A DNA stretch of 25,931 bases from a virus, in IMG/VR virus record IMGVR_UViG_3300026078_000084, positions 1-25,931 of that record; one strand, given 5' to 3'. The notes beneath the pieces were generated by a model. It had not been told where the DNA came from, made no database searches, and saw only the letters and a program-made list of their open reading frames with translations. The translations under genes were made by a program, and so were the position numbers. Positions 5,454 to 25,875 of this stretch are shown in pieces (position 1 is the first letter of the stretch; each line of letters begins with the position of its first letter).

Positions 5454-6050
5454 TTATAAGGTTCTGAGTTTAGGCATTATCCACGGCACTTTGATCCATT
5501 CAAAAAATTCCTGTTCACTATCCCACATAGGAGGCCTCTCAGCGTCAGGGTTAATGCAACGCCAACTGCGCTTATTTGAAAGCTTATCGATCGATTCCAC
5601 GCAGTCAGATATTTTTCTTAGTCCCATATCACTACCGCACCAGCCTTTTCGAAGCCAGCCGGCAGCAATCGTCTTATGCGCATATTCAGCTGATCCTGTA
5701 CGTATAGCGTATTGGCGAAAGTAATCGTCCGGATCAGGCATGAAGAGATCAAGATTGATCCGCTGCGGCAGCTCGATCTGCATATATCTCCCATCCGGTT
5801 TGCCTTTAATAATTTTACCCAGGGACTTCACCATCCCGACATAATTCACGCTGATAACTTTTTCGACAGCTGTATCGCTGAATAAGGCAGCCTGGTTACC
5901 TTCAACATACCGCGGAAGGCATATGATCTCAATATCTTTCACATCCGGCTTTTCGCGGCGTATGCTGCCGGCGATATTAATGCGCGTGGTGAAGGGCATA
6001 AGCTTTAGCCCTACCTGCTTTGCAATTTCTTTAGCATCGTTTAGTCTCAT
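5454..6050 (-). CDS. DNA polymerase X-like nucleotidyltransferase
   Basis: A 198-residue protein with a Pol-beta-type palm. The helix N-cap motif is AGSIRREKPDVKDIEII, giving Gly28-Ser29 and the acidic pair Asp39 and Glu41. A third carboxylate is in RINLDLFMP (Asp101), and YAIRTGSAEYAHK follows at about 114-126. The second acidic residue is Glu rather than the usual Asp. The fingers and the 8-kDa lyase domain of full Pol X enzymes are reduced or absent, so a gap-filling or other nucleotidyl-transfer reaction is likely but the substrate is unknown. Its ATG overlaps the helicase stop (ATGA at 6047-6050). Confidence 0.8.
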   Translation of the reverse strand: MRLNDAKEIAKQVGLKLMPFTTRINIAGSIRREKPDVKDIEIICLPRYVEGNQAALFSDTAVEKVISVNYVGMVKSLGKIIKGKPDGRYMQIELPQRINLDLFMPDPDDYFRQYAIRTGSAEYAHKTIAAGWLRKGWCGSDMGLRKISDCVESIDKLSNKRSWRCINPDAERPPMWDSEQEFFEWIKVPWIMPKLRTL

Positions 6051-8299
6051 GCTGCTGCTTTTGAAAATGGAACATTGGTTAACTGTCGGCCCTCATTGAC
6101 AATCATGTATAATCCCCGCTCATCGGTGGTGATCTTCATTGTCTCGATCTTTCCAAACAGATTGATATTCCCACCGAGATCAACGATCCATCCTTCCTTC
6201 ACACTGCCGTCGGCATACTTGAATGGCCGCATAACACGCCCAACAATCTGGTAATATAGAGCAAGCGACATGGTTGAACGCGCAATAAGAACAGCTTCCA
6301 GTTCCGGGTAATCGAACCCTGTCGTCAGTACGCCCACGTTTATCACGCAGCGAATCTTGCCCGCTTTAAACTCGTTTAATATTTTAGTCCGAACAGCCAT
6401 TTCTGTTTCACCGGTAATTACCACGGATCCGGGAATGCCTTTGGCTACCTGCATGGCCTCATCGATCAATGCGCAAAACACCAGCAGGTTATTACGTTTC
6501 TTTAGTAGCCGATTGCCATACTCGATCGTGATCTTTGGCATGTTAATCTGCCGGTAATATGCCCTCATTGAAGCATCGGTAAAATCGGTACCTGACGAGT
6601 TCATCGAAAGCATGGTGCGATCGATCACATTGAAGGAGAAATATTTCAACGGTGCCAGGTGACCGGCATTGAAAAGCACATCGTTCTGGACGTAATAGAG
6701 CACCTTATTAAATATTCTCGGTACTTGACGGGTTATAAACCGCAGTTCTGCACCCTCCACGCCCGATGCCAATCTGTATGGCGTTGCAGTTAAACCAAGG
6801 ACTTTTGTATGCGACAGCGTATTAATAAAGTTTTCATACATGCCTTGGGCGGGATTCACCAGGTGACAGTTATGGACAATTATGCCACAAGGAGGAGACT
6901 TATAGTTCTTGTCATATCTTCCGGGAGAAATAACATAGGTCTCATTATCTTCTACCTGGATATTATATACAGGTTCAATTCCGGCTAATTCTTTTCCCTG
7001 TAAGACACATGCTCCACGTTCCTCGAATGAAACATCCCAAGTATAAGTACCTGCTAAGTGTCTCACCGAATCTACCAGCTTGTACTTCATGGAAGGATGA
7101 ACATATTTTGCGATAAGCCGACTTAAATTTTCGAGGGCTGTCTTTTTGAATTTGATATAATAATGCGGCTTATTACTCAATGTGCTTTTACCCGTACATA
7201 CCGATCCGGGCGCCCCAAAAGATCTTAATTTGGCGCAAAGCTTTTCGGTCAACTCCTTCGATGTTGCGGTTGAGTAGAGCGAGGCTTGATTTTGATTCTT
7301 TGATAAGTAGCCATCATCCATCCATGCAACTGCAAGCATCTTGTGATTCAAATTGTCAATTGCATATTCCTGTGTACACCGATCGTCTTCCAAAAAAAGA
7401 ACATTGGACGAGAAGCCAAATGCTTCTTTGCCAGCGAACCCATTCTTTTTTATCAGTCGCGGTTTTTGGTTCAATAATTCGGCCTTCCATTGCAAGTATT
7501 CTTTTTGATCGGCTCCCTGAATAAAACGAAATCTGTTAATGTTTTTGATTTTCCTCGTCTTATCCAAAGAGCCATCGCCCAGTAAGCTGCCGAGAAGAAA
7601 AGATTGCTGATCCTTGTTCGGAATGACCGAATATGTTCCATTTGCCCAAGATGTTAAAATGCAATCACCTATCTGCAATTCACCCGCGGTTCTCCAACCA
7701 TTGTTTGTTAGGAATGGATGATTTGCAGTACACTTGACATTTACATTCTTGCTAAATTTTAGGTTCAAGAGCTCTCGTTCTCCATTACATCTACCGGTTA
7801 TAACTGACTTTAACTCCATGCAATCGGCTTTCTCATTATAGCTTAATACTCTTGGCATTTTTTTACCAGCCTTCAACTGCTTCACGTAATATCCGATGCG
7901 CATTTTCCCGGTCTCGGTACTGATGAATGCATCATAGGGAAAACACTCATCGATGATTATGTTCTTGAACTTCTCGAAAAGGTGAATTTTCTTAGCCACG
8001 CTTCCGATTGTAACAAAGGTGATATCATCGATGTACTTCATACCTGCAGACGCAGAATAGATGCCGGCGCGGTACCCGTACGATAAGAACTTTTTGAAGT
8101 TCTGTTCAAGGATCTCTTTCGATGGCTGGAAAACCACGGTTTTACCGGTTAATTCTTTTGCGATATTGGCAATAACTACACTTTTCCCTGATCCCGTTGG
8201 CAGGATTTCGATGCCGTTGTATTTCTTTTTCGGATCATGAAAAAAATCAACAGCGGCATCGATCGCTTCTCGCTGATATGGTCTTGGTTGAAAGCTCAT
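6047..8299 (-). CDS. Superfamily 2 DNA helicase interrupted by an intein
   Basis: A 750-residue precursor: 391 residues of helicase plus a 359-residue intein at 119-477. Extein motifs are Q-motif-like RPYQREAID (6-14), Walker A LPTGSGKS (33-40), motif II DE|CH split by the intein (117-118 and 478-479), motif III LTATP (503-507), motif V TTGFDYP (659-665) and motif VI QIVGRVMRPF (684-693). After splicing it is an RecG/UvsW-size DExH helicase of the DEAD/DEAH-like type common in phage replication modules, probably unwinding recombination or replication intermediates. It is coupled by ATGA overlaps to the genes on both sides (8296-8299 and 6047-6050). Confidence 0.93.
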   Translation of the reverse strand: MSFQPRPYQREAIDAAVDFFHDPKKKYNGIEILPTGSGKSVVIANIAKELTGKTVVFQPSKEILEQNFKKFLSYGYRAGIYSASAGMKYIDDITFVTIGSVAKKIHLFEKFKNIIIDECFPYDAFISTETGKMRIGYYVKQLKAGKKMPRVLSYNEKADCMELKSVITGRCNGERELLNLKFSKNVNVKCTANHPFLTNNGWRTAGELQIGDCILTSWANGTYSVIPNKDQQSFLLGSLLGDGSLDKTRKIKNINRFRFIQGADQKEYLQWKAELLNQKPRLIKKNGFAGKEAFGFSSNVLFLEDDRCTQEYAIDNLNHKMLAVAWMDDGYLSKNQNQASLYSTATSKELTEKLCAKLRSFGAPGSVCTGKSTLSNKPHYYIKFKKTALENLSRLIAKYVHPSMKYKLVDSVRHLAGTYTWDVSFEERGACVLQGKELAGIEPVYNIQVEDNETYVISPGRYDKNYKSPPCGIIVHNCHLVNPAQGMYENFINTLSHTKVLGLTATPYRLASGVEGAELRFITRQVPRIFNKVLYYVQNDVLFNAGHLAPLKYFSFNVIDRTMLSMNSSGTDFTDASMRAYYRQINMPKITIEYGNRLLKKRNNLLVFCALIDEAMQVAKGIPGSVVITGETEMAVRTKILNEFKAGKIRCVINVGVLTTGFDYPELEAVLIARSTMSLALYYQIVGRVMRPFKYADGSVKEGWIVDLGGNINLFGKIETMKITTDERGLYMIVNEGRQLTNVPFSKAAA
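6869..7945 (-). mobile_element. LAGLIDADG intein within the helicase gene
   Basis: An in-frame insertion of 359 codons. It starts with Cys119 (CFPYDAFISTETG, block A) and ends IIVHN (block G) followed by the +1 Cys478 of the extein. Block B has the T-x-x-H motif (TANH, 191-194), and block F is at about 444-460 (VYNIQVEDNETYVI). Two LAGLIDADG motifs, LLGSLLGDG (235-243) and LAVAWMDDG (322-330), retain their acidic catalytic residues, so the homing endonuclease looks intact. All residues needed for splicing (Cys1, His-Asn, Cys+1) are present. It would spread by cutting intein-less copies of the same helicase site. Confidence 0.95.
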
Positions 8300-9048: not shown

Positions 9049-10614
9049 TTAAGCGATTTTTCGGTTATGTCCAATAAGGCGGGATGCAAGCGCTTCGGTC
9101 CATCTTTTCACCACGAGTGGCACCACACTATTTCCGATGAACTTTTTTTGATCTGTCTGGTTTCCCGCCAATTTGTATTCAATCGGGAAACCCTGTATTC
9201 GAAGTAATTCATGTACACGAAGCATGCGCATCTTTATGTCAACAATACCATATACAGCCATGAACTGTTTGATGCGGATCATTACTTCGCTATCACCTTC
9301 ATAAATTGGGACCAGGAAATTTCCTGTTTCAGCTTGTACAACGTAGAGCGGTGCTTTATCCTGTCGCGCAATTATTACCGGGCATGGACCATCAGTAGAC
9401 TGGATGTGACCGCCGTGCGACGGATTTACCAGATAATGATATTTCCTGTTGGCCGTTATTGTCGGTGCTGGCTGATCAATTGATACGGGTTTGTTGTCGT
9501 AGTTTGTCGGCATAATGAAGGGAGCGCAAGTAATAACGCGATGCTTATCATTCGGCATAACGGTTCCGGCAGGATGCTCGATCGACAGTACCTGAGCAGA
9601 TATCATTGCTATGCGATCCTTTGTCGGAATCGTTGGAGCGGGTTTGTCTATCGCTGAAATATTATCTCCATTGCCGTAATATGCAGCCAAGAATCGAGCT
9701 TGTACCAAATATTGGTTATTGAATGTGGTAACAGTCCCTGCCGGCTTCCCTATGCTAACAACCTTACCGGTAGGCTTCCCGCTATAGTATTTGGTGATAA
9801 ATGAAGTATCGCCTTTAGCTACAAACTTTACCAATCCAGCATATATCCTTTCCAGGGAGCTATCAACGAGGGGAACCTTTCGGTTAAATATACTTTCCCC
9901 TTCATCATCAAAATCAAGAACGTCCTTCACTGCCTTCCATTTCTGAAGATCGCCATGCATAGAAAACTTTGAGGGGTTCTTGGCATGCGTTGGTTCAGGC
10001 CAAACGATCGGCAAACCCGGTCGCGCAAATATTCCAAATAACCGGTTACGGCTTGTATAGGCTCCGTAATTGGCGCTGTTCAATTCTTTCCAGTCATCTA
10101 CATAGCCATGACTACAGATCAATTTTCTCCATCTCATCCAATCCTGACCGTTCTTTCTTGACATCGGTTTGCCTTTTTCGTCAAGCGGTCCCCAACTCAT
10201 GAACTCTACGACATTTTCTATCTGTACATAATCAGGTTGAAGTGCAACGATATACCTGTCAAGGTGATCTGCCAGGGTCCGGCTGTCAGCATCCCGCGGT
10301 TGACCGCCCTTCGCCTTAGAGAAATTTGTGCATTCGAGAGATGCCCAAAGAATTACAAATGCATTGGGGCATTTCATCTTATAATAGCCAACGAGTTTAA
10401 TCAGTTCTGTTAAATCCAACGTGCGGATGTCTTCTTCAAAATGTTTTACATCAGGATGATTCAACCAGTGTGATTTGATCGCCTTTGGATCATGATTAAT
10501 GCAGGCAATAACTTTTGCAAGGCTGATATCCTCTAATTCAGCCTGCACAAAGCCCGTGGTCGTTCCACCAGCACCACAAAAAAGGTCAATAACCAAGAAT
10601 AATGGATCGTTCAT
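9049..10614 (-). CDS. DNA cytosine-C5 methyltransferase
   Basis: I start this gene at 10614 (521 residues) rather than 10638. The ATG there overlaps the TGA of the upstream gene as ATGA, and the protein then begins MNDPLFLVIDLFCGAGG, the usual distance to motif I. Other C5-methylase motifs are ECTNFS with the catalytic Cys95 (motif IV, Glu94 where Pro is usual), ENV at 133-135 (motif VI), SRNRLFGI (motif VIII, about 188-195) and GNSVVP (motif X, about 494-499). Between motifs VIII and X, in the target-recognition region, lie five short repeats of the type KPAPTIxTxDR (about 290-427). It methylates cytosine in phage DNA; the target sequence is unknown, and no restriction partner is seen. Confidence 0.92.
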   Translation of the reverse strand: MNDPLFLVIDLFCGAGGTTTGFVQAELEDISLAKVIACINHDPKAIKSHWLNHPDVKHFEEDIRTLDLTELIKLVGYYKMKCPNAFVILWASLECTNFSKAKGGQPRDADSRTLADHLDRYIVALQPDYVQIENVVEFMSWGPLDEKGKPMSRKNGQDWMRWRKLICSHGYVDDWKELNSANYGAYTSRNRLFGIFARPGLPIVWPEPTHAKNPSKFSMHGDLQKWKAVKDVLDFDDEGESIFNRKVPLVDSSLERIYAGLVKFVAKGDTSFITKYYSGKPTGKVVSIGKPAGTVTTFNNQYLVQARFLAAYYGNGDNISAIDKPAPTIPTKDRIAMISAQVLSIEHPAGTVMPNDKHRVITCAPFIMPTNYDNKPVSIDQPAPTITANRKYHYLVNPSHGGHIQSTDGPCPVIIARQDKAPLYVVQAETGNFLVPIYEGDSEVMIRIKQFMAVYGIVDIKMRMLRVHELLRIQGFPIEYKLAGNQTDQKKFIGNSVVPLVVKRWTEALASRLIGHNRKIA

Positions 10615-11462
10615 TGTAATAAATTTTGTAGTGACCAATTATTCTTAAAAGTTGCTTCGCCTCGAATTTCCATGTCTATCAGGTCTGACAACAATCCCGG
10701 GCGGTGCCTGGCGCCAACCTTCAGATCATTCAAACTCCCGAGAATACAAAAAACGCAACTGACCCGATCATTCCCATATGCATAAGCGGGGTGAAAAGGC
10801 CACCATCCGGGGACTGAATTATTTAATCTGTAATATTCCCTGGCCTCAGAAAGAAGTTGAGAATTCATGTTATAGGTGCTCCAAACTTCTTCAGTTGAAA
10901 AGTTGAATATCGGGTACCATGTTATGGCAAGTCTTTTTCCAGATGTGAAGTTTGCAATGGACTCTTCCACAGTCATGCCCTTATAAAAAGCACTTGTGAT
11001 ACTCCACCTAATTTCAAGAGGATTCTTTTTCGCCCTGGCACGGCTCTCTTCGGCCCTTACACCTTCGCAACTGATAATAAAGTCATGTCCGCATTTCCGA
11101 AGAAAAGAATTAATCGGACCTCGCTTTAGATCACTGGTACAGTATCTATTAACCGCACTGCTCCAAAATGGCTTACCTGTACCCGCCAGTTTTCCTAAAC
11201 GATCTTCCCAATGGTCCAATAAATCGCGGTCGTCTGAACGATGACCAATATATAAAGGGATATCAAATTCTCCTTGCAACTTTTTACACATCATCATGCT
11301 TTCGGTCCATTCTATTCTACCGAGATCTGCATGTACCAAAGCTTCAACTGTAAATCCCCAATTCGTTAGCGACTTAACCATAGCCTGACCATCCTTCCCC
11401 CCTGATATGCTGCTATAAAGCTTTGCGCCTTTGGAAATAGCTGAGTTTACTAAGTCGATCAT
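10611..11462 (-). CDS. PAPS reductase-like PP-loop protein
   Basis: A 283-residue adenine-nucleotide alpha-hydrolase-fold protein. The PP-loop is SISGGKDGQAM (18-28), with Gly25 where most members have Ser or Thr. Also present are YCTSDLKRGP (107-116), GVRAEESRAR (134-143) and a CVFC pair (236-239) with Cys108, which could bind metal or an Fe-S cluster. This is the PAPS reductase/DndC-like group often found in phages, where sulfur assimilation, base thiolation or DNA phosphorothioation have all been suggested. Overlap with the C5 methyltransferase (ATGA at 10611-10614) suggests a joint role in DNA modification. Substrate unknown. Confidence 0.88.
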   Translation of the reverse strand: MIDLVNSAISKGAKLYSSISGGKDGQAMVKSLTNWGFTVEALVHADLGRIEWTESMMMCKKLQGEFDIPLYIGHRSDDRDLLDHWEDRLGKLAGTGKPFWSSAVNRYCTSDLKRGPINSFLRKCGHDFIISCEGVRAEESRARAKKNPLEIRWSITSAFYKGMTVEESIANFTSGKRLAITWYPIFNFSTEEVWSTYNMNSQLLSEAREYYRLNNSVPGWWPFHPAYAYGNDRVSCVFCILGSLNDLKVGARHRPGLLSDLIDMEIRGEATFKNNWSLQNLLQ

Positions 11463-11778: not shown

Positions 11779-12078
11779 TTATGTAAATTCAAATCGTTCG
11801 TTTTCTTTTACTATTGTCGTTTTAAAAGGAAGCTTCTCTCGCGGCACTTTTTCAATCTGATCCATAAGGCCTGTCGAACCTGTAAAAATCACGTGCTTCG
11901 TTTGATTCAGTTCTATTTGCAGATGCAGGCATTTTCCTGATGCCTTTTCGAATTTTGATTTCTCAATCTTATAATCGAGCACCACGATCTCCCGATTTAA
12001 GATGCGGTCGATCTTTATTTTGTCGCCGGTGAAGGCGACGCGGGAGGATGTTATCTGAAAGTCTTTGAATGCGTTCAT
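11779..12078 (-). CDS. Phage hypothetical protein overlapping the RT gene
   Basis: A 99-residue protein (MNAFKDFQITSSRVAFTGDK start), rich in beta-strand-type sequence and lysine, with FTGSTGLMDQIEKVP near 65-80. Its first 110 bases overlap, in another frame, the last 36 codons of the reverse transcriptase. The balanced composition and the tight two-base spacing to the KTSC gene suggest this frame is the older gene and that the RT gene has come to run into it. No family recognised; a single-strand-binding or other replication accessory role would be guesswork. Confidence 0.7.
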   Translation of the reverse strand: MNAFKDFQITSSRVAFTGDKIKIDRILNREIVVLDYKIEKSKFEKASGKCLHLQIELNQTKHVIFTGSTGLMDQIEKVPREKLPFKTTIVKENERFEFT

Positions 12079-13027
12079 TGCTTAGTAAGGTTTTGAGTAA
12101 GTGCCCGCAGTTTGCATGACAACACCAACCATAATAACTTGCTATTGATAGTCTATTGGGGCGGCTTGCCACCATGCGAGCGAAATTTTGTTTAATGGAT
12201 TTTCTAAGTAATGTATGCGAGTGGTAAAATCTATAACCGACAAAGTCGATTCCCCTGGATTCTACCGGAAACACTTGATAGTTTTCTTTTACGGTCAGAT
12301 TAAGGCGCTCTTTTAAATAACCGGTAATATCGGAAAGCAGAACGTGCAGGTAGGATTTGTCATGGTGAAGGATCACCAGATCATCAGCATAGCGGAAATA
12401 ATACCGAACCTGCTTCTGCTCTTTAATCCAATGGTCGAAATAAGTAAGATAAAAATTCGCAAAATATTGGCTGAGATAATTGCCGATAGGAAGTCCGCTG
12501 GCACTGTCGATGATCTCATCCAGAAGCCAAAGCAGATCCTGATCTTTAAATTTCCGGCGGAGCAAATGCTTTAATATGGGATGATCGACAGATGGATAAA
12601 ACTTTTTAATGTCCAATTTCAGGCAGTATGTAGTGCCGGATGAATCCCGCAAATCCCGCTTAATGCCCAGAGCGGCCGCATGAATGCCTTTCCCCTTTAT
12701 GCAGGAATAAGTATCCGCCGTGAACGTGGAGCAAAATACCGGCTCCAATACATTCATTATGGCATGATGTACAATGCGATCCGGAAAATAAGGAAGCCTG
12801 AATACCTCGCGTTCTTTTGGCTCGTAAATTTTAAAGGTAGTGTACTTCGAAGTAGAGTAAGTCTTACTTAAAAGAGAATTATGTAACCAGAGTATATTGG
12901 TTTCACGGTTTTTGTCGTGAATATGAATCCCATATTGTTTTGATTTCCCTTTTCTGGCTATTGCATCTGCCAGATTGAGATTATCAATACTACAAATTCG
13001 CCGATATAAATTTCCTATCCGCTTCAT
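11969..13027 (-). CDS. Diversity-generating retroelement reverse transcriptase
   Basis: A 352-residue reverse transcriptase. Visible motifs are LKLDIKKFYPSVD with the first catalytic Asp139, IGNYLSQYFANFYL (181-194) and FRYADDLVIL with YADD at 213-216. The IGNxxSQ form of motif 4, with SQ where retroviral and group II enzymes have QG, is a hallmark of DGR reverse transcriptases. Size fits the family. It reads the template RNA encoded just upstream (13137-13200), misincorporating opposite adenines, so that the cDNA replaces variable repeats in the two target genes. No maturase or endonuclease domain is present, so it is not a group II intron, and no retron msr/msd lies next to it. The last 36 codons overlap the next gene out of frame and are probably not conserved. 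Confidence 0.95.
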   Translation of the reverse strand: MKRIGNLYRRICSIDNLNLADAIARKGKSKQYGIHIHDKNRETNILWLHNSLLSKTYSTSKYTTFKIYEPKEREVFRLPYFPDRIVHHAIMNVLEPVFCSTFTADTYSCIKGKGIHAAALGIKRDLRDSSGTTYCLKLDIKKFYPSVDHPILKHLLRRKFKDQDLLWLLDEIIDSASGLPIGNYLSQYFANFYLTYFDHWIKEQKQVRYYFRYADDLVILHHDKSYLHVLLSDITGYLKERLNLTVKENYQVFPVESRGIDFVGYRFYHSHTLLRKSIKQNFARMVASRPNRLSIASYYGWCCHANCGHLLKTLLSNERIQRLSDNILPRRLHRRQNKDRPHLKSGDRGARL

Positions 13028-13136
13028 TATACAGGCCTTGTTTACGCGGTCGCTTTCCCGTTTCCGGTACCGGCGCCCTGGTTAAAAGAAACTTTTTTTG
13101 CCAAGGGGCAAGGTCTGTACTGCAAAATCAATCAAA
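13028..13136 (-). other. DGR template-to-RT spacer
   Basis: These 109 bases separate the template repeat from the RT start and should be part of the template RNA. By analogy with the Bordetella phage DGR, sequence downstream of the template repeat is needed to prime cDNA synthesis. Visible structure: a small hairpin TTGCC/GGCAA (13098-13102 with 13107-13111) and a 10-base palindrome CCGGTACCGG at 13064-13073. No open reading frame for an Avd-type accessory protein fits here. The functional role is inferred. Confidence 0.5.
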
Positions 13137-13200
13137 CAATGTGGGAGCTGACATTCGAATTCGTGTTATCGTAGTTGACATCGTTCAGGCGAAAGCCGGA
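13137..13200 (-). repeat. DGR template repeat (TR)
   Basis: A 64-base non-coding copy of the variable repeats, 42 bases beyond the stop of the nearer target gene and 109 bases before the RT. In the frame of the targets it would read GFRLNDVNYDNTNSNVSSHI then Val-stop. It has five Asn codons (AAC/AAT), the usual adenine-rich codons of DGR templates. Of 17 coding-strand adenines, 13 differ in VR1 and 15 in VR2. None of the other 47 bases differs in VR1, and only the outermost differs in VR2. This one-directional adenine pattern identifies it as the donor. Confidence 0.96.
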
Positions 13201-13242
13201 AAGCGAAGCCGCCAGCCACAGCAGTACACAACCTGTTTTATT

Positions 13243-13638
13243 TTATTCCAATACCATTAAATCGCGATAAAGAGATTCAAACTGCTTTGCAGCATATTCT
13301 GCGAGCTTCCGTGTTCGATATACAAGGCGGGAGCCGACAGACGAATACGCGTCATCGCAGCGGACAGCGTGCAGGCGAAAGCCGGATGGATTATTCTCAG
13401 CCTTTTCGAGATCGAACCAAGGATAATATTTGTCTTCCTCGCAATTAGTCCAATCCGGCGTCCAGTCCTTATTGCCATTATCAACGTAGTTCATTGCCTC
13501 ATTGACAATAATGAGTTTGCTTGTGGCTGTCAATGCTTTTTTGTGCTGCTCAGGAAAGACTGAAAAATCAGGCAGAACCGTTTCAGGGTTATAACCTTTT
13601 ACCTTACAGGCATCTTCGAAAGTTTTGATTTGTTTCAT
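13243..13638 (-). CDS. DGR variable protein 1
   Basis: A 131-residue target protein. Residues 1-70 form a helical part (IKTFEDACKVKGYNPE at 4-19) also present in variable protein 2. KYYPWFDLEKA (70-80) precedes the variable stretch at 85-105 (GFRLHAVRCDDAYSSVGSRL). A non-templated tail, LAEYAAKQFESLYRDL (112-127), ends the protein. The WYPWF...GFRL...VGSRLVF...AxYAAxQFxxLY layout occurs in small Bacteroidetes phage proteins, but I know no function. No signal peptide or phage-tail feature is visible. Eleven codons differ from the template, all through adenine changes. Confidence 0.9.
   Translation of the reverse strand: MKQIKTFEDACKVKGYNPETVLPDFSVFPEQHKKALTATSKLIIVNEAMNYVDNGNKDWTPDWTNCEEDKYYPWFDLEKAENNPSGFRLHAVRCDDAYSSVGSRLVYRTRKLAEYAAKQFESLYRDLMVLE
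13323..13386 (-). repeat. DGR variable repeat 1 (VR1)
   Basis: This repeat aligns without gaps to the template repeat over 64 bases with 13 differences, every one at a template adenine on the coding strand. Changed codons correspond to residues 90, 91, 93, 94, 96, 97, 98, 100, 102, 104 and 105 of variable protein 1 (for example AAC to CAC, AAC to CGC, AAT to TCT). The constant part encodes SGFRL at the upstream end. Confidence 0.95.
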
Positions 13639-13673
13639 TTTTTACGCTTGAAATATTGGTGAAAAGTGAAGTT

Positions 13674-14150
13674 TTATATTTCAAAAAGATTGCTGTATAA
13701 CCCCAGGAATTGATTAGCCGCATAGCGAGCAAGTTCTTCCGTTATAAAAACAAGGCGGGAGCCGACACCCGAACCCGCGGCATCGCAGCCGACACCGTCC
13801 AGGCGAAAGCCGGGTTTATCCATATAGAACCAAGGGTACCATTTCCTTTCATTGGAGTTGTTATAATCGGGTACCCATTCCTTTTTGCCATTTGCAAGGA
13901 AATTCAAGGCCCTCACTACTACTTTCAGTTGTTTATAAGCAACTTCGTCCTGTTCGTCTGATTCATGCCAAACGTCGTCAGTATCGATATCAAGGATTTC
14001 GCAGGCATCAGCGAAAGTTTTTATTCTGTCAGTGGGCTTTTCAGAGAAAAACGGTTTGCCGAAAGTGTCTTCAAGGACGGCCTTAAAATCATCAGAAGCT
14101 TTCGGATAAAGTTTTTTGGCATTGCCTTCGTCAATAACTAATTGTTTCAT
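13674..14150 (-). CDS. DGR variable protein 2
   Basis: A 158-residue paralogue of variable protein 1. I choose the ATG at 14150 (MKQLVIDEGNAKKLYPKASD) because it lies 20 bases after the upstream gene; the longer frame from 14252 overlaps that gene and adds an unlikely leader. The N-terminal 40 residues are extra relative to protein 1. RIKTFADACEILDID (42-56) and KWYPWFYM (103-110) match protein 1. The variable stretch is at 113-133 (GFRLDGVGCDAAGSGVGSRL), followed by LARYAANQFLGLYSNLF (140-156). Its variable positions are unusually glycine- and alanine-rich in this copy, perhaps an inert or recently mutated state. Confidence 0.9.
   Translation of the reverse strand: MKQLVIDEGNAKKLYPKASDDFKAVLEDTFGKPFFSEKPTDRIKTFADACEILDIDTDDVWHESDEQDEVAYKQLKVVVRALNFLANGKKEWVPDYNNSNERKWYPWFYMDKPGFRLDGVGCDAAGSGVGSRLVFITEELARYAANQFLGLYSNLFEI
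13751..13814 (-). repeat. DGR variable repeat 2 (VR2)
   Basis: This repeat aligns gap-free to the template repeat, with 15 of 17 coding-strand adenines changed plus one non-adenine difference at the outermost base (13814), which probably marks the homology edge. Homology with the template also continues three bases further at the other edge (13748-13750). VR1 and VR2 differ from each other at eight of the adenine positions, so the two targets have been mutated independently. Confidence 0.95.
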
Positions 14151-14169: not shown

Positions 14170-14907
14170 TTAAAATGGGGTTTTGTTAAAAGGTATTTCC
14201 ATACCTGCTTCGGCAATATGAACAGTCTTACCGGTAACTTCCTGCACTTCACGTTGAAATCTCAATGCATCACTGTTGCCGTCGGAAAGGTGAATCAGTA
14301 CGATGTTGTTTACCTGGCTGAGATCATTTGCCTTTAAAAGCTCTTTACAGGTCTGGATGCTCATATGGCCTTCTATGACATGGTCGCGGTATTTCTTCGC
14401 CACACCGGCCTCGTATTGCTCCTGTAGTATGTTTTCGCAGTAATTGGCTTCCAGGATGATATTGTTCAGACCTGAGAACTTATACCGGGAATAATAACTG
14501 TCTGTGAGGAAAAGAACGCTACCACATTCATCATGGTAGATCAGGTAGCCAAATGGTTGAGCGGCGCCATGCATCACGTCAAATGGAAGCACTTTGAAGT
14601 TTCCGATCATCGCCTGTTTACCGGATTCAAGATTCCATGCGCGGTGATGATCGCTTGTACCCATGGCTTTGTGTGTACCTGCTGAAGTATATGCATTAAT
14701 CCCTGCCCGTAATATATTATGCACCGATTTGCAATGGTCCTTATGTTCATGGGAGATAAGACAGCCAACAACTTTTTTAAGGTTGAAACCAAGTGCCTGC
14801 TGGATCCTGTCAAAGCGAACGCCACATTCAAGAATTAACGTCTCCTGATCATTACCCAGCAGGTAACTATTGCCGGCACTATTGCTTCCAATGATGGTCA
14901 ACTTCAT
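14170..14907 (-). CDS. Metallo-beta-lactamase-fold hydrolase/nuclease
   Basis: A 245-residue MBL-fold protein starting at the first strand (MKLTIIGSNSAGNSYLL). The metal motif is SHEHKDH (His53, His55, Asp57, His58). Further candidate ligands lie in VMHG (about 111-114), LTDS (about 133-136) and the late IHLSDGN. It resembles the YycJ/WalJ-type hydrolases that phages carry next to RecT, which points to a DNA nuclease in recombination rather than a lactamase. The ATG overlaps the recT stop (ATGA at 14904-14907). It may supply the exonuclease that RecT needs; this is inferred from position. Confidence 0.85.
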   Translation of the reverse strand: MKLTIIGSNSAGNSYLLGNDQETLILECGVRFDRIQQALGFNLKKVVGCLISHEHKDHCKSVHNILRAGINAYTSAGTHKAMGTSDHHRAWNLESGKQAMIGNFKVLPFDVMHGAAQPFGYLIYHDECGSVLFLTDSYYSRYKFSGLNNIILEANYCENILQEQYEAGVAKKYRDHVIEGHMSIQTCKELLKANDLSQVNNIVLIHLSDGNSDALRFQREVQEVTGKTVHIAEAGMEIPFNKTPF

Positions 14908-24306: not shown

Positions 24307-25875
24307 ATGAAAGCCATCGGGTACATACGACTATCAGACGAGGACCAAAGCAACTATTCAATTGAAGGTCAGGAACGGCAAATTAAAGAATACTGCAATA
24401 AGAATAATCTCGAACTGCTGAAAATTTATCAGGATAACGGTGAAAATTCTTACACTTTCGACCGTAAAGCGTTTGGCACACTCGAAAAAGAAATTAAGCA
24501 GGCTCAATTTCTTATTGTATATCATCTCGACCGGTTCAGCCGTAATATGGCTGAAGCAATGTTAAAAGTCAGTCAATACTTGGAGCGGGGCATTCGGATA
24601 CGCGACGTCACTGAGGAACTGACCATGGATGACTACGATCCTAATGTTTTTATGATGCGCACATTAAAATTCATGCAGGCGGAAATGGAATTGCACAATA
24701 TACGCCGCCGAACGAGAAAGGGAATGGTTGACGCAGCGCTCGCCGGCAGGCATGCGAATGTGGCTCCGGTCGGATATAACAATGCTCGCGACGAAAGAAA
24801 TAAACCAATTCTTACTATTGATGAAGAAAAGGGTTTTATTATCCGCATCATTTTTCGTGAATACCTAAACGGAATGGGTGTGGAGGAACTTAGAAGAATG
24901 GCGTCCCGATACGGCTTTAAACATAAAGGAAATAGTGCCATACAACGTATTCTTGCAAATCCTGTATACGCCGGATTCGTGAAAGTTCCAGCAACCAAAA
25001 CTCAACCGGCCCACCTGGTGAAAGGTCTGCATACTCCCCTCATTAGTGAACAGGATTACTGGTTGGTTCAAGAACGACTTCAAGGAAAAACGATGTCCAT
25101 TCAAAATAGGGAAGATGTACCTCTTCGTGGAGTTCTTCAATGTTCATGTGGTAGAAAATTTACTGCTGGTAATAGTAAGGGTAAGACCAGGTATTACTGG
25201 TACTACGTGTGTCATGAATGCCGCCAGAATCTATCAGCAAAGTGTCTTCATAAACAATTCGATGAGTTATTGGATAACCTGTCTTTCGATCCAAAGGATC
25301 TGCAACTACTAAAACAAAAATTATCGGCAAAACTAAATGACTATATAAAAAATCGCGGTGATAAAATCAGGCAGGCAGAAAAACAACTGAAGTTAGTGGA
25401 GGAAAAAATAAGTTCTGTAGAAATCAAATGGCTAACAAAACCGGATGTTTCGGAAGCTTCTTATAACAAAGTTATTTCTGAATTAAGGGCAGATCAAAGC
25501 CGGCTATATAAAGAAATTACCAAGGCAAACACGAACCAGCAGGCCTATTGGGATAAAATGAATAACCTACTCTTAATACTTTCGGACCTTCGATCTCATT
25601 TTGAAAAACTCGAATTGGAAAAAAAGCATCAGTTTATAAATTGGGTGTTCGACAGCAGCTTGAGCCATGATGGAGAAATCTATCGAACACCTTTCATCAA
25701 TGACCTGTTCGCTCACAACACATTGACATTAAAAGAAAAGGGACTACTGGAAATAGTAGCCCCTGTCATAAAATTGGGAGAAACTCCCATTCGTACCCGG
25801 GATGGGAGCTCTATCGAACACTTTCCCGATATTTTAACTCACCTGGACCGCTTACTGGCCATCTTTGCCGCTTAA
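24307..25875 (+). CDS. Large serine recombinase (phage integrase)
   Basis: A 522-residue serine integrase. The N-terminal catalytic domain starts KAIGYIRLSDEDQSNYSIEG with nucleophile Ser10, and YHLDRFSRN (72-80) carries the conserved arginines. The recombinase domain is at about 155-260 (PVGYNNARDE, RILANPVYAGF). A zinc ribbon has Cys279, Cys281, Cys302 and Cys305, and a long coiled coil (about 340-420) follows, as needed for synapsis control. It catalyses attP x attB integration and, with a directionality factor, excision. Its position at the end of the element is typical, with an att site close by. Confidence 0.95.
   Translation: MKAIGYIRLSDEDQSNYSIEGQERQIKEYCNKNNLELLKIYQDNGENSYTFDRKAFGTLEKEIKQAQFLIVYHLDRFSRNMAEAMLKVSQYLERGIRIRDVTEELTMDDYDPNVFMMRTLKFMQAEMELHNIRRRTRKGMVDAALAGRHANVAPVGYNNARDERNKPILTIDEEKGFIIRIIFREYLNGMGVEELRRMASRYGFKHKGNSAIQRILANPVYAGFVKVPATKTQPAHLVKGLHTPLISEQDYWLVQERLQGKTMSIQNREDVPLRGVLQCSCGRKFTAGNSKGKTRYYWYYVCHECRQNLSAKCLHKQFDELLDNLSFDPKDLQLLKQKLSAKLNDYIKNRGDKIRQAEKQLKLVEEKISSVEIKWLTKPDVSEASYNKVISELRADQSRLYKEITKANTNQQAYWDKMNNLLLILSDLRSHFEKLELEKKHQFINWVFDSSLSHDGEIYRTPFINDLFAHNTLTLKEKGLLEIVAPVIKLGETPIRTRDGSSIEHFPDILTHLDRLLAIFAA

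What the first reader, a model, noticed from the sequence alone, without database searches (positions are those of the whole stretch)
11969..14150. Complete DGR with strictly adenine-specific divergence in two targets
Seen directly: the 64-base template repeat differs from VR1 at 13 positions and from VR2 at 15, all at coding-strand adenines (17 available), plus one edge base in VR2; the other bases match. The RT has the DGR motif IGNYLSQ and YADD. The two VRs differ from each other at eight adenine sites, so mutagenesis was repeated and independent. With 17 adenines the theoretical DNA repertoire per target is 4 to the 17th.
Basis: partly seen in the sequence, partly recalled or inferred. Interest (0 to 1): 0.88.

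Follow-up and report, generated by a model that had tools for sequence, protein, structure and literature searches.

The report
Phage mutation cassette with two targets
This phage carries a real diversity-generating retroelement that rewrites only adenine positions in two small neighbouring genes; it is a known kind of device, but its cassette also contains an overlooked partner gene strictly tied to the reverse transcriptase, and it sits among replication genes, far from the tail genes where such devices usually work.

Summary
In detail: a 65-nt template repeat (TR, 13136-13200 -) differs from VR1 at 13 and from VR2 at 15 positions, all template adenines, plus one edge base in VR2. The RT groups with DGR RTs. 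Two inferences need correction. The three 3' adenines (SSH to GSR) are fixed TR/VR differences across 220 related VRs, so about 14 adenines are mutable (4^14 DNA, 1.9e8 protein variants), not 17. No second copy of this phage was found, so activity is shown only in relatives: near-identical contigs differ at 21, 39 and 15 sites, of which 21, 35 and 15 are VR template-adenine positions.

Beyond the finding: (1) a basic 99-aa ORF (11779-12078 -) overlapping the RT end, without Pfam or PDB match, follows the RT in 122/123 twin-target loci and is fused to the RT in the 123rd, in L313 and in a hankyphage; as bait it sits beside an RT in 78/78 testable loci. No Avd was found. (2) The twin targets are small, leaderless proteins beside replication genes, 15-29 kb from tape-measure genes in relatives, suggesting intracellular diversification (inferred). 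The TR-RT spacer is a covarying RNA resembling Rfam RT-17.

The parts
11969..13027 (-). DGR reverse transcriptase, 352 aa (IGNYLSQ, YADD)
   Evidence: RVT_1 and phrog_1423; inside the DGR clade; 81% identical to a Niastella caeni prophage RT
11779..12078 (-). accessory ORF, 99 aa, pI 9.3, 11.6 kDa; overlaps the RT 3' end
   Evidence: phrog_19665 of unknown function; 122/123 twin-target loci, fused to the RT in L114 and a hankyphage and in L313; RT upstream in 78/78 testable bait loci
13136..13200 (-). template repeat (TR), 65 nt, 17 coding-strand A of which about 14 are mutable
13322..13386 (-). variable repeat 1 (VR1)
   Evidence: 13 mismatches to TR, all at A
13750..13814 (-). variable repeat 2 (VR2)
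   Evidence: 15 mismatches at A plus a T>C at the edge
13243..13638 (-). target 1, 131 aa, VR1 near the C-terminus
   Evidence: homologous small target in the same place in relatives
13674..14150 (-). target 2, 158 aa (ATG at 14150; the ORF list gives an upstream GTG at 14252), VR2 near the C-terminus
13030..13119 (-). structured RNA spacer between TR and RT; first hairpin 13098-13111
   Evidence: covariation score 0.649 against 0.042-0.105 for slid controls over 40 sequences; Rfam RT-17 at 13038-13115, 32.1 bits, below the gathering score of 40.4; extra long-range arms 13109-13119 / 13030-13040 seen in the window only, not part of the consensus structure
13136..13149 (-). 3' end of TR, proposed IMH*-like stretch (TR has A at 13149, 13142, 13140 where VRs carry G, G, C)
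   Evidence: fixed differences in 202/202, 197/197 and 24/24 VRs

Best explanation
A functional-looking diversity-generating retroelement without a recognisable Avd, in a Bacteroidota phage. The TR plus the folded spacer RNA between TR and RT is transcribed and reverse-transcribed by the RT, which misincorporates opposite template adenines. The mutagenised cDNA replaces the core of VR1 or VR2 (about 14 adenines), while the 3' GSR stretch stays fixed and distinguishes VR from TR (IMH versus IMH*). The 99-aa basic protein encoded in overlap with the RT is proposed to be an RT cofactor, for example holding the template RNA. The two targets are small soluble proteins from an early/replication block, proposed to be variable binders used inside the infected cell. 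Shown: repeats, A-specificity, DGR-clade RT, spacer RNA covariation, accessory linkage and fusion, live variation in relatives. Inferred: cofactor role, intracellular role, activity in this phage.
For: Repeats and A-specificity. RT clade. Same [target 2][target 1][TR][RT] order in relatives: 129 loci with small targets. Live variation restricted to template-A sites in VRs of near-identical relatives. Fixed 3' sites. Spacer RNA. Accessory linkage; fusions in L114 and a hankyphage and L313; hankyphage domain by hhalign 97.4%, E=1.3e-11; copies just after the RT in the archaeal viruses vir525 and ANMV-1. Context: neighbours with a known family are mostly replication, recombination and methyltransferase genes; the 12 records with a tape-measure match have it 15-29 kb from the RT (coordinates). 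Of 242 targets none has a hydrophobic N-terminal core and 2 have a TM-like segment.
Against: No population data for this phage (one search found no copy). The accessory role is inferred from linkage and fusion only; hankyphage has both an annotated Avd and the fused domain, so the domain need not replace Avd. 10 of 19 large-target loci with related RTs show no detectable accessory. Not every small window ORF was scanned for Avd. The neighbour tables list only the top 25 families.
Confidence: 0.8

Rival explanations
1. The targets are virion proteins (minor tail or decoration proteins) and the DGR changes host range as in BPP-1; the early-region location is incidental.
For: Most viral DGR targets are annotated as tail proteins (Roux 2021, PMC8144416). 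A LoVEphage homologue of the targets has a C-terminal stretch 49% identical over 39 columns to the VR domain of the large targets.
Against: Neighbours are replication/DNA-metabolism genes; tape measure 15-29 kb away in 12/12 records that have one; 131-158 aa with no fibre domain; DGRs with related RTs and large targets sit beside tail genes instead.
Confidence: 0.35
2. The DGR is intact in sequence but no longer active in this phage; VR divergence is an old record of activity.
For: No second copy to show variation; 7 of 13 VR1 changes are shared with VR2.
Against: RT, TR, VRs, accessory and spacer RNA are all intact; all eight VR1/VR2 adenine differences lie in the mutable core; relatives are active.
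Confidence: 0.12
3. The 99-aa ORF is a neighbouring phage gene with an unrelated job, kept next to the RT by shared translation only.
For: No functional annotation anywhere.
Against: 78/78 testable bait loci have the RT next to it while other flanking genes vary; three RT fusions; also in archaeal viruses.
Confidence: 0.1

Closest known systems
Bordetella phage BPP-1 DGR (Mtd/Avd/Brt)
   Same: RT in the same DGR clade, A-specific TR to VR transfer, VR at the target C-terminus
   Different: BPP-1 has one tail-fibre target and Avd between VR and TR; here two small early-region targets, no Avd found, and a 99-aa ORF overlapping the RT
crAss-like phage DGRs (LMMB, cr52_1, cr55_1, cr60_1)
   Same: nearest RTs in named phages, 50-57% identity
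   Different: tail-protein targets, holin next to the RT in several; the accessory is not detectable there, except a weak, unreliable resemblance at the cr55_1 RT C-terminus
Hankyphage DGR
   Same: RT carries the same accessory domain fused at its C-terminus (E=2e-10)
   Different: also has an ORF annotated as Avd and a tail-fibre target
ANMV-1 archaeal virus DGR
   Same: homologous small ORF directly after the RT; Paul 2015 drew a putative Avd for ANMV-1 (PMC4372165), which ORF was meant is not certain
   Different: archaeal virus, single target adtA near tail-fibre genes
Rfam RT-17 RNA (RF03020)
   Same: full-length weak match in the TR-RT spacer, E=2.6e-4; relative L150 passes the threshold
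   Different: window scores below the gathering cut-off; 17 of 18 relatives tested are not recognised at that cut-off

Membership tests
Diversity-generating retroelement | RT within the DGR clade | tested here: met
   100% SH-aLRT against non-DGR RTs (quick tree, long branches flagged)
Diversity-generating retroelement | TR and VR differing at template adenines only | tested here: met
Diversity-generating retroelement | VR near the C-terminus of a target ORF | tested here: met
Diversity-generating retroelement | IMH/IMH* difference at the 3' end of VR and TR | tested here: met
   fixed G/G/C in VRs where TR has A; function as IMH inferred
Diversity-generating retroelement | hairpin just downstream of VR (present in BPP-1, not universal) | tested here: not met
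   no fold better than shuffles, z -0.72 and -0.26
Diversity-generating retroelement | active VR diversification | tested here: inconclusive
   shown in relatives, not testable in this phage
Avd-type DGR accessory | Avd homologue (four-helix, S23/IVP family) in the cassette | tested here: not met
   no PF05635 among neighbour hits listed and no profile similarity of the 99-aa ORF to two Avd proteins; not every small window ORF was scanned
C-type-lectin DGR target | CLec fold around the VR | tested here: inconclusive
   AF2 models (pLDDT 86, 90) have no PDB fold match; profile bridge through a LoVEphage homologue
Rfam RT-17 RNA | covariance-model score above the gathering cut-off | tested here: not met
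   32.1 against 40.4 bits in the window; met by L150

The most novel reading that the evidence does not exclude
A widespread class of Bacteroidota phage DGRs uses a previously unrecognised RT cofactor, a basic 100-aa domain encoded in overlap with or fused to the RT, and diversifies pairs of small intracellular early proteins rather than tail fibres, for example to meet host factors or defences.
Probability: 0.35. Interest if true: 0.8.

Novelty: new variant of a known kind. Interest (0 to 1): 0.5.

Why it matters
A DGR that lacks a recognisable Avd but carries a strictly linked, sometimes fused RT domain offers a testable second solution for DGR priming or template binding. Hypervariable proteins made beside replication genes would extend DGR use from host attachment to events inside the infected cell. 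The many relatives, and contigs that differ almost only at template adenines, make both questions open to direct experiments. Whether Wu et al. 2018 (not held here) already describe this accessory as their unclassified protein could not be checked.

Tried and rejected
A scan for other copies of the TR/VR scaffold in IMG/VR found none. Pfam, PDB sequence and Foldseek-PDB searches of the targets gave no family. Accessory as Avd homologue: rejected by profile comparison. Accessory fused in crAss-like RTs: only a weak hit for cr55_1, not claimed. Hairpin downstream of the VRs: no better than shuffles. The minimum-energy fold of the window spacer alone is not better than shuffles; only the alignment shows the structure. 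The first RT motif filter missed L206/L043; a direct tblastn found the RT. Wu 2018 is not held, and a search for papers naming its accessory genes found nothing relevant.

Full report
Observation. The window is a 25,931-bp IMG/VR phage contig. On the minus strand it carries, in transcription order, target 2 (13674-14150), target 1 (13243-13638), a 65-nt TR (13136-13200), an RT (11969-13027) and a 99-aa ORF (11779-12078). TR against VR1 gives 13 mismatches, all at template A; TR against VR2 gives 15 at A and one T>C at the first base; there are 17 A, and VR1 and VR2 differ at 8 A sites and the edge base.

RT. RVT_1 and phrog_1423 match; NCBIfam scores for group II, retron and DRT families are all far below their cut-offs. 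In a quick tree of 48 RTs the window RT lies with BPP-1, VHML, BalMu-1, ANMV-1, vir525, hankyphage and crAss-like DGR RTs, apart from group II and another non-DGR RT at 100% SH-aLRT (some branches are long). The nearest RT is 81% identical, in a Niastella caeni prophage.

Relatives. An adenine-only repeat caller rang in 149 of 161 loci, the window included, of which 129 have small targets; VR1 lies about 190 nt and VR2 about 600 nt upstream of the TR, and the TR ends about 100 nt before the RT. Live variation: L009/L087 differ at 21 sites, all VR template-A positions; the L017 group of five contigs has 39 variable columns, 35 of them such positions; L141/L142 (a large-target relative) differ at 15, all such positions. 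No second copy of the window phage was found.

Effective repertoire. Across 220 VRs, template-A sites at -42 to -5 relative to the GSR motif are variable, whereas sites at 0, +7 and +9 are G, G and C in 202/202, 197/197 and 24/24 VRs where TR has A. In the window these are TR positions 52, 59 and 61, shared by VR1 and VR2. They look like IMH/IMH* differences; Paul 2015 describes G versus A differences of that kind (PMC4372165). That leaves 14 mutable A: 4^14 = 2.7e8 DNA and 1.9e8 protein variants, with no stop codon possible in the core.

Spacer RNA. In 40 sequences the TR-RT spacer has three helices with strong covariation, score 0.649 against 0.042-0.105 for slid controls, 96% of cells paired. 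Rfam RT-17 matches it below cut-off in the window and above it in L150.

Accessory. The 99-aa ORF (pI 9.3; family median 9.0) matches phrog_19665 of unknown function, no Pfam above cut-off and no PDB sequence. It follows the RT in 122 of 123 twin-target loci, mostly overlapping its end. The exception, L114, has it fused to the RT (E=9e-45), as does a hankyphage (E=2e-10), and L313 (E=2.5e-28). Used as bait in IMG/VR, 77 of 78 testable loci had an RT upstream by motif and the last by tblastn. Two archaeal viruses carry it after the RT. Profile comparison with two Avd proteins gives nothing; with the hankyphage RT C-terminus it gives 97.4% probability. A role as RT cofactor is inferred.

Targets. 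No Pfam, PDB or NCBIfam family. AF2 models (pLDDT 86 and 90) are helical, in the target 2 model with a hairpin leading into the VR, and end in two helices; Foldseek finds no PDB fold and only uncharacterised phage proteins. A LoVEphage homologue aligns over its length (E=1.4e-29) and also, over 39 columns at 49% identity, with the VR domain of large targets, so a reduced C-type-lectin-like domain is possible. Of 242 targets, 2 have a TM-like segment and none a hydrophobic N-terminal core. Neighbours with a known family are replication, recombination, integrase, terminase and methyltransferase genes, with no tail family among the top 25 listed, and in the 12 records with a tape-measure match it lies 15-29 kb from the RT (my arithmetic with the coordinates). 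I infer an intracellular role; it is not shown.

Literature. Roux 2021 reports tail structure proteins for most viral DGR targets and C-type lectin folds for the annotated VR regions (PMC8144416). A review mentions one DGR-associated protein from an earlier survey that has no Pfam or CDD assignment (PMC10053308). I take that survey to be Wu 2018, which is not held, so prior notice of the accessory cannot be excluded.

Noticed in passing
6047-8299 (-): RadD/ResIII-like helicase ORF containing an intein (TIGR01445, LAGLIDADG_2)
   Followed up: no
9049-11462 (-): C5 cytosine methyltransferase next to a PAPS-reductase-like gene; a methyltransferase also follows the DGR in other loci
   Followed up: partly
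24307-25875 (+): large serine recombinase, likely the phage integrase
   Followed up: no
LoVEphage L166:8001-8585: homologue of the small targets with no RT annotated in the 16.6-kb stretch fetched
   Followed up: partly
L130:19285-19412: a pair called by the adenine caller here is a tandem repeat within an ORF, not a DGR
   Followed up: no
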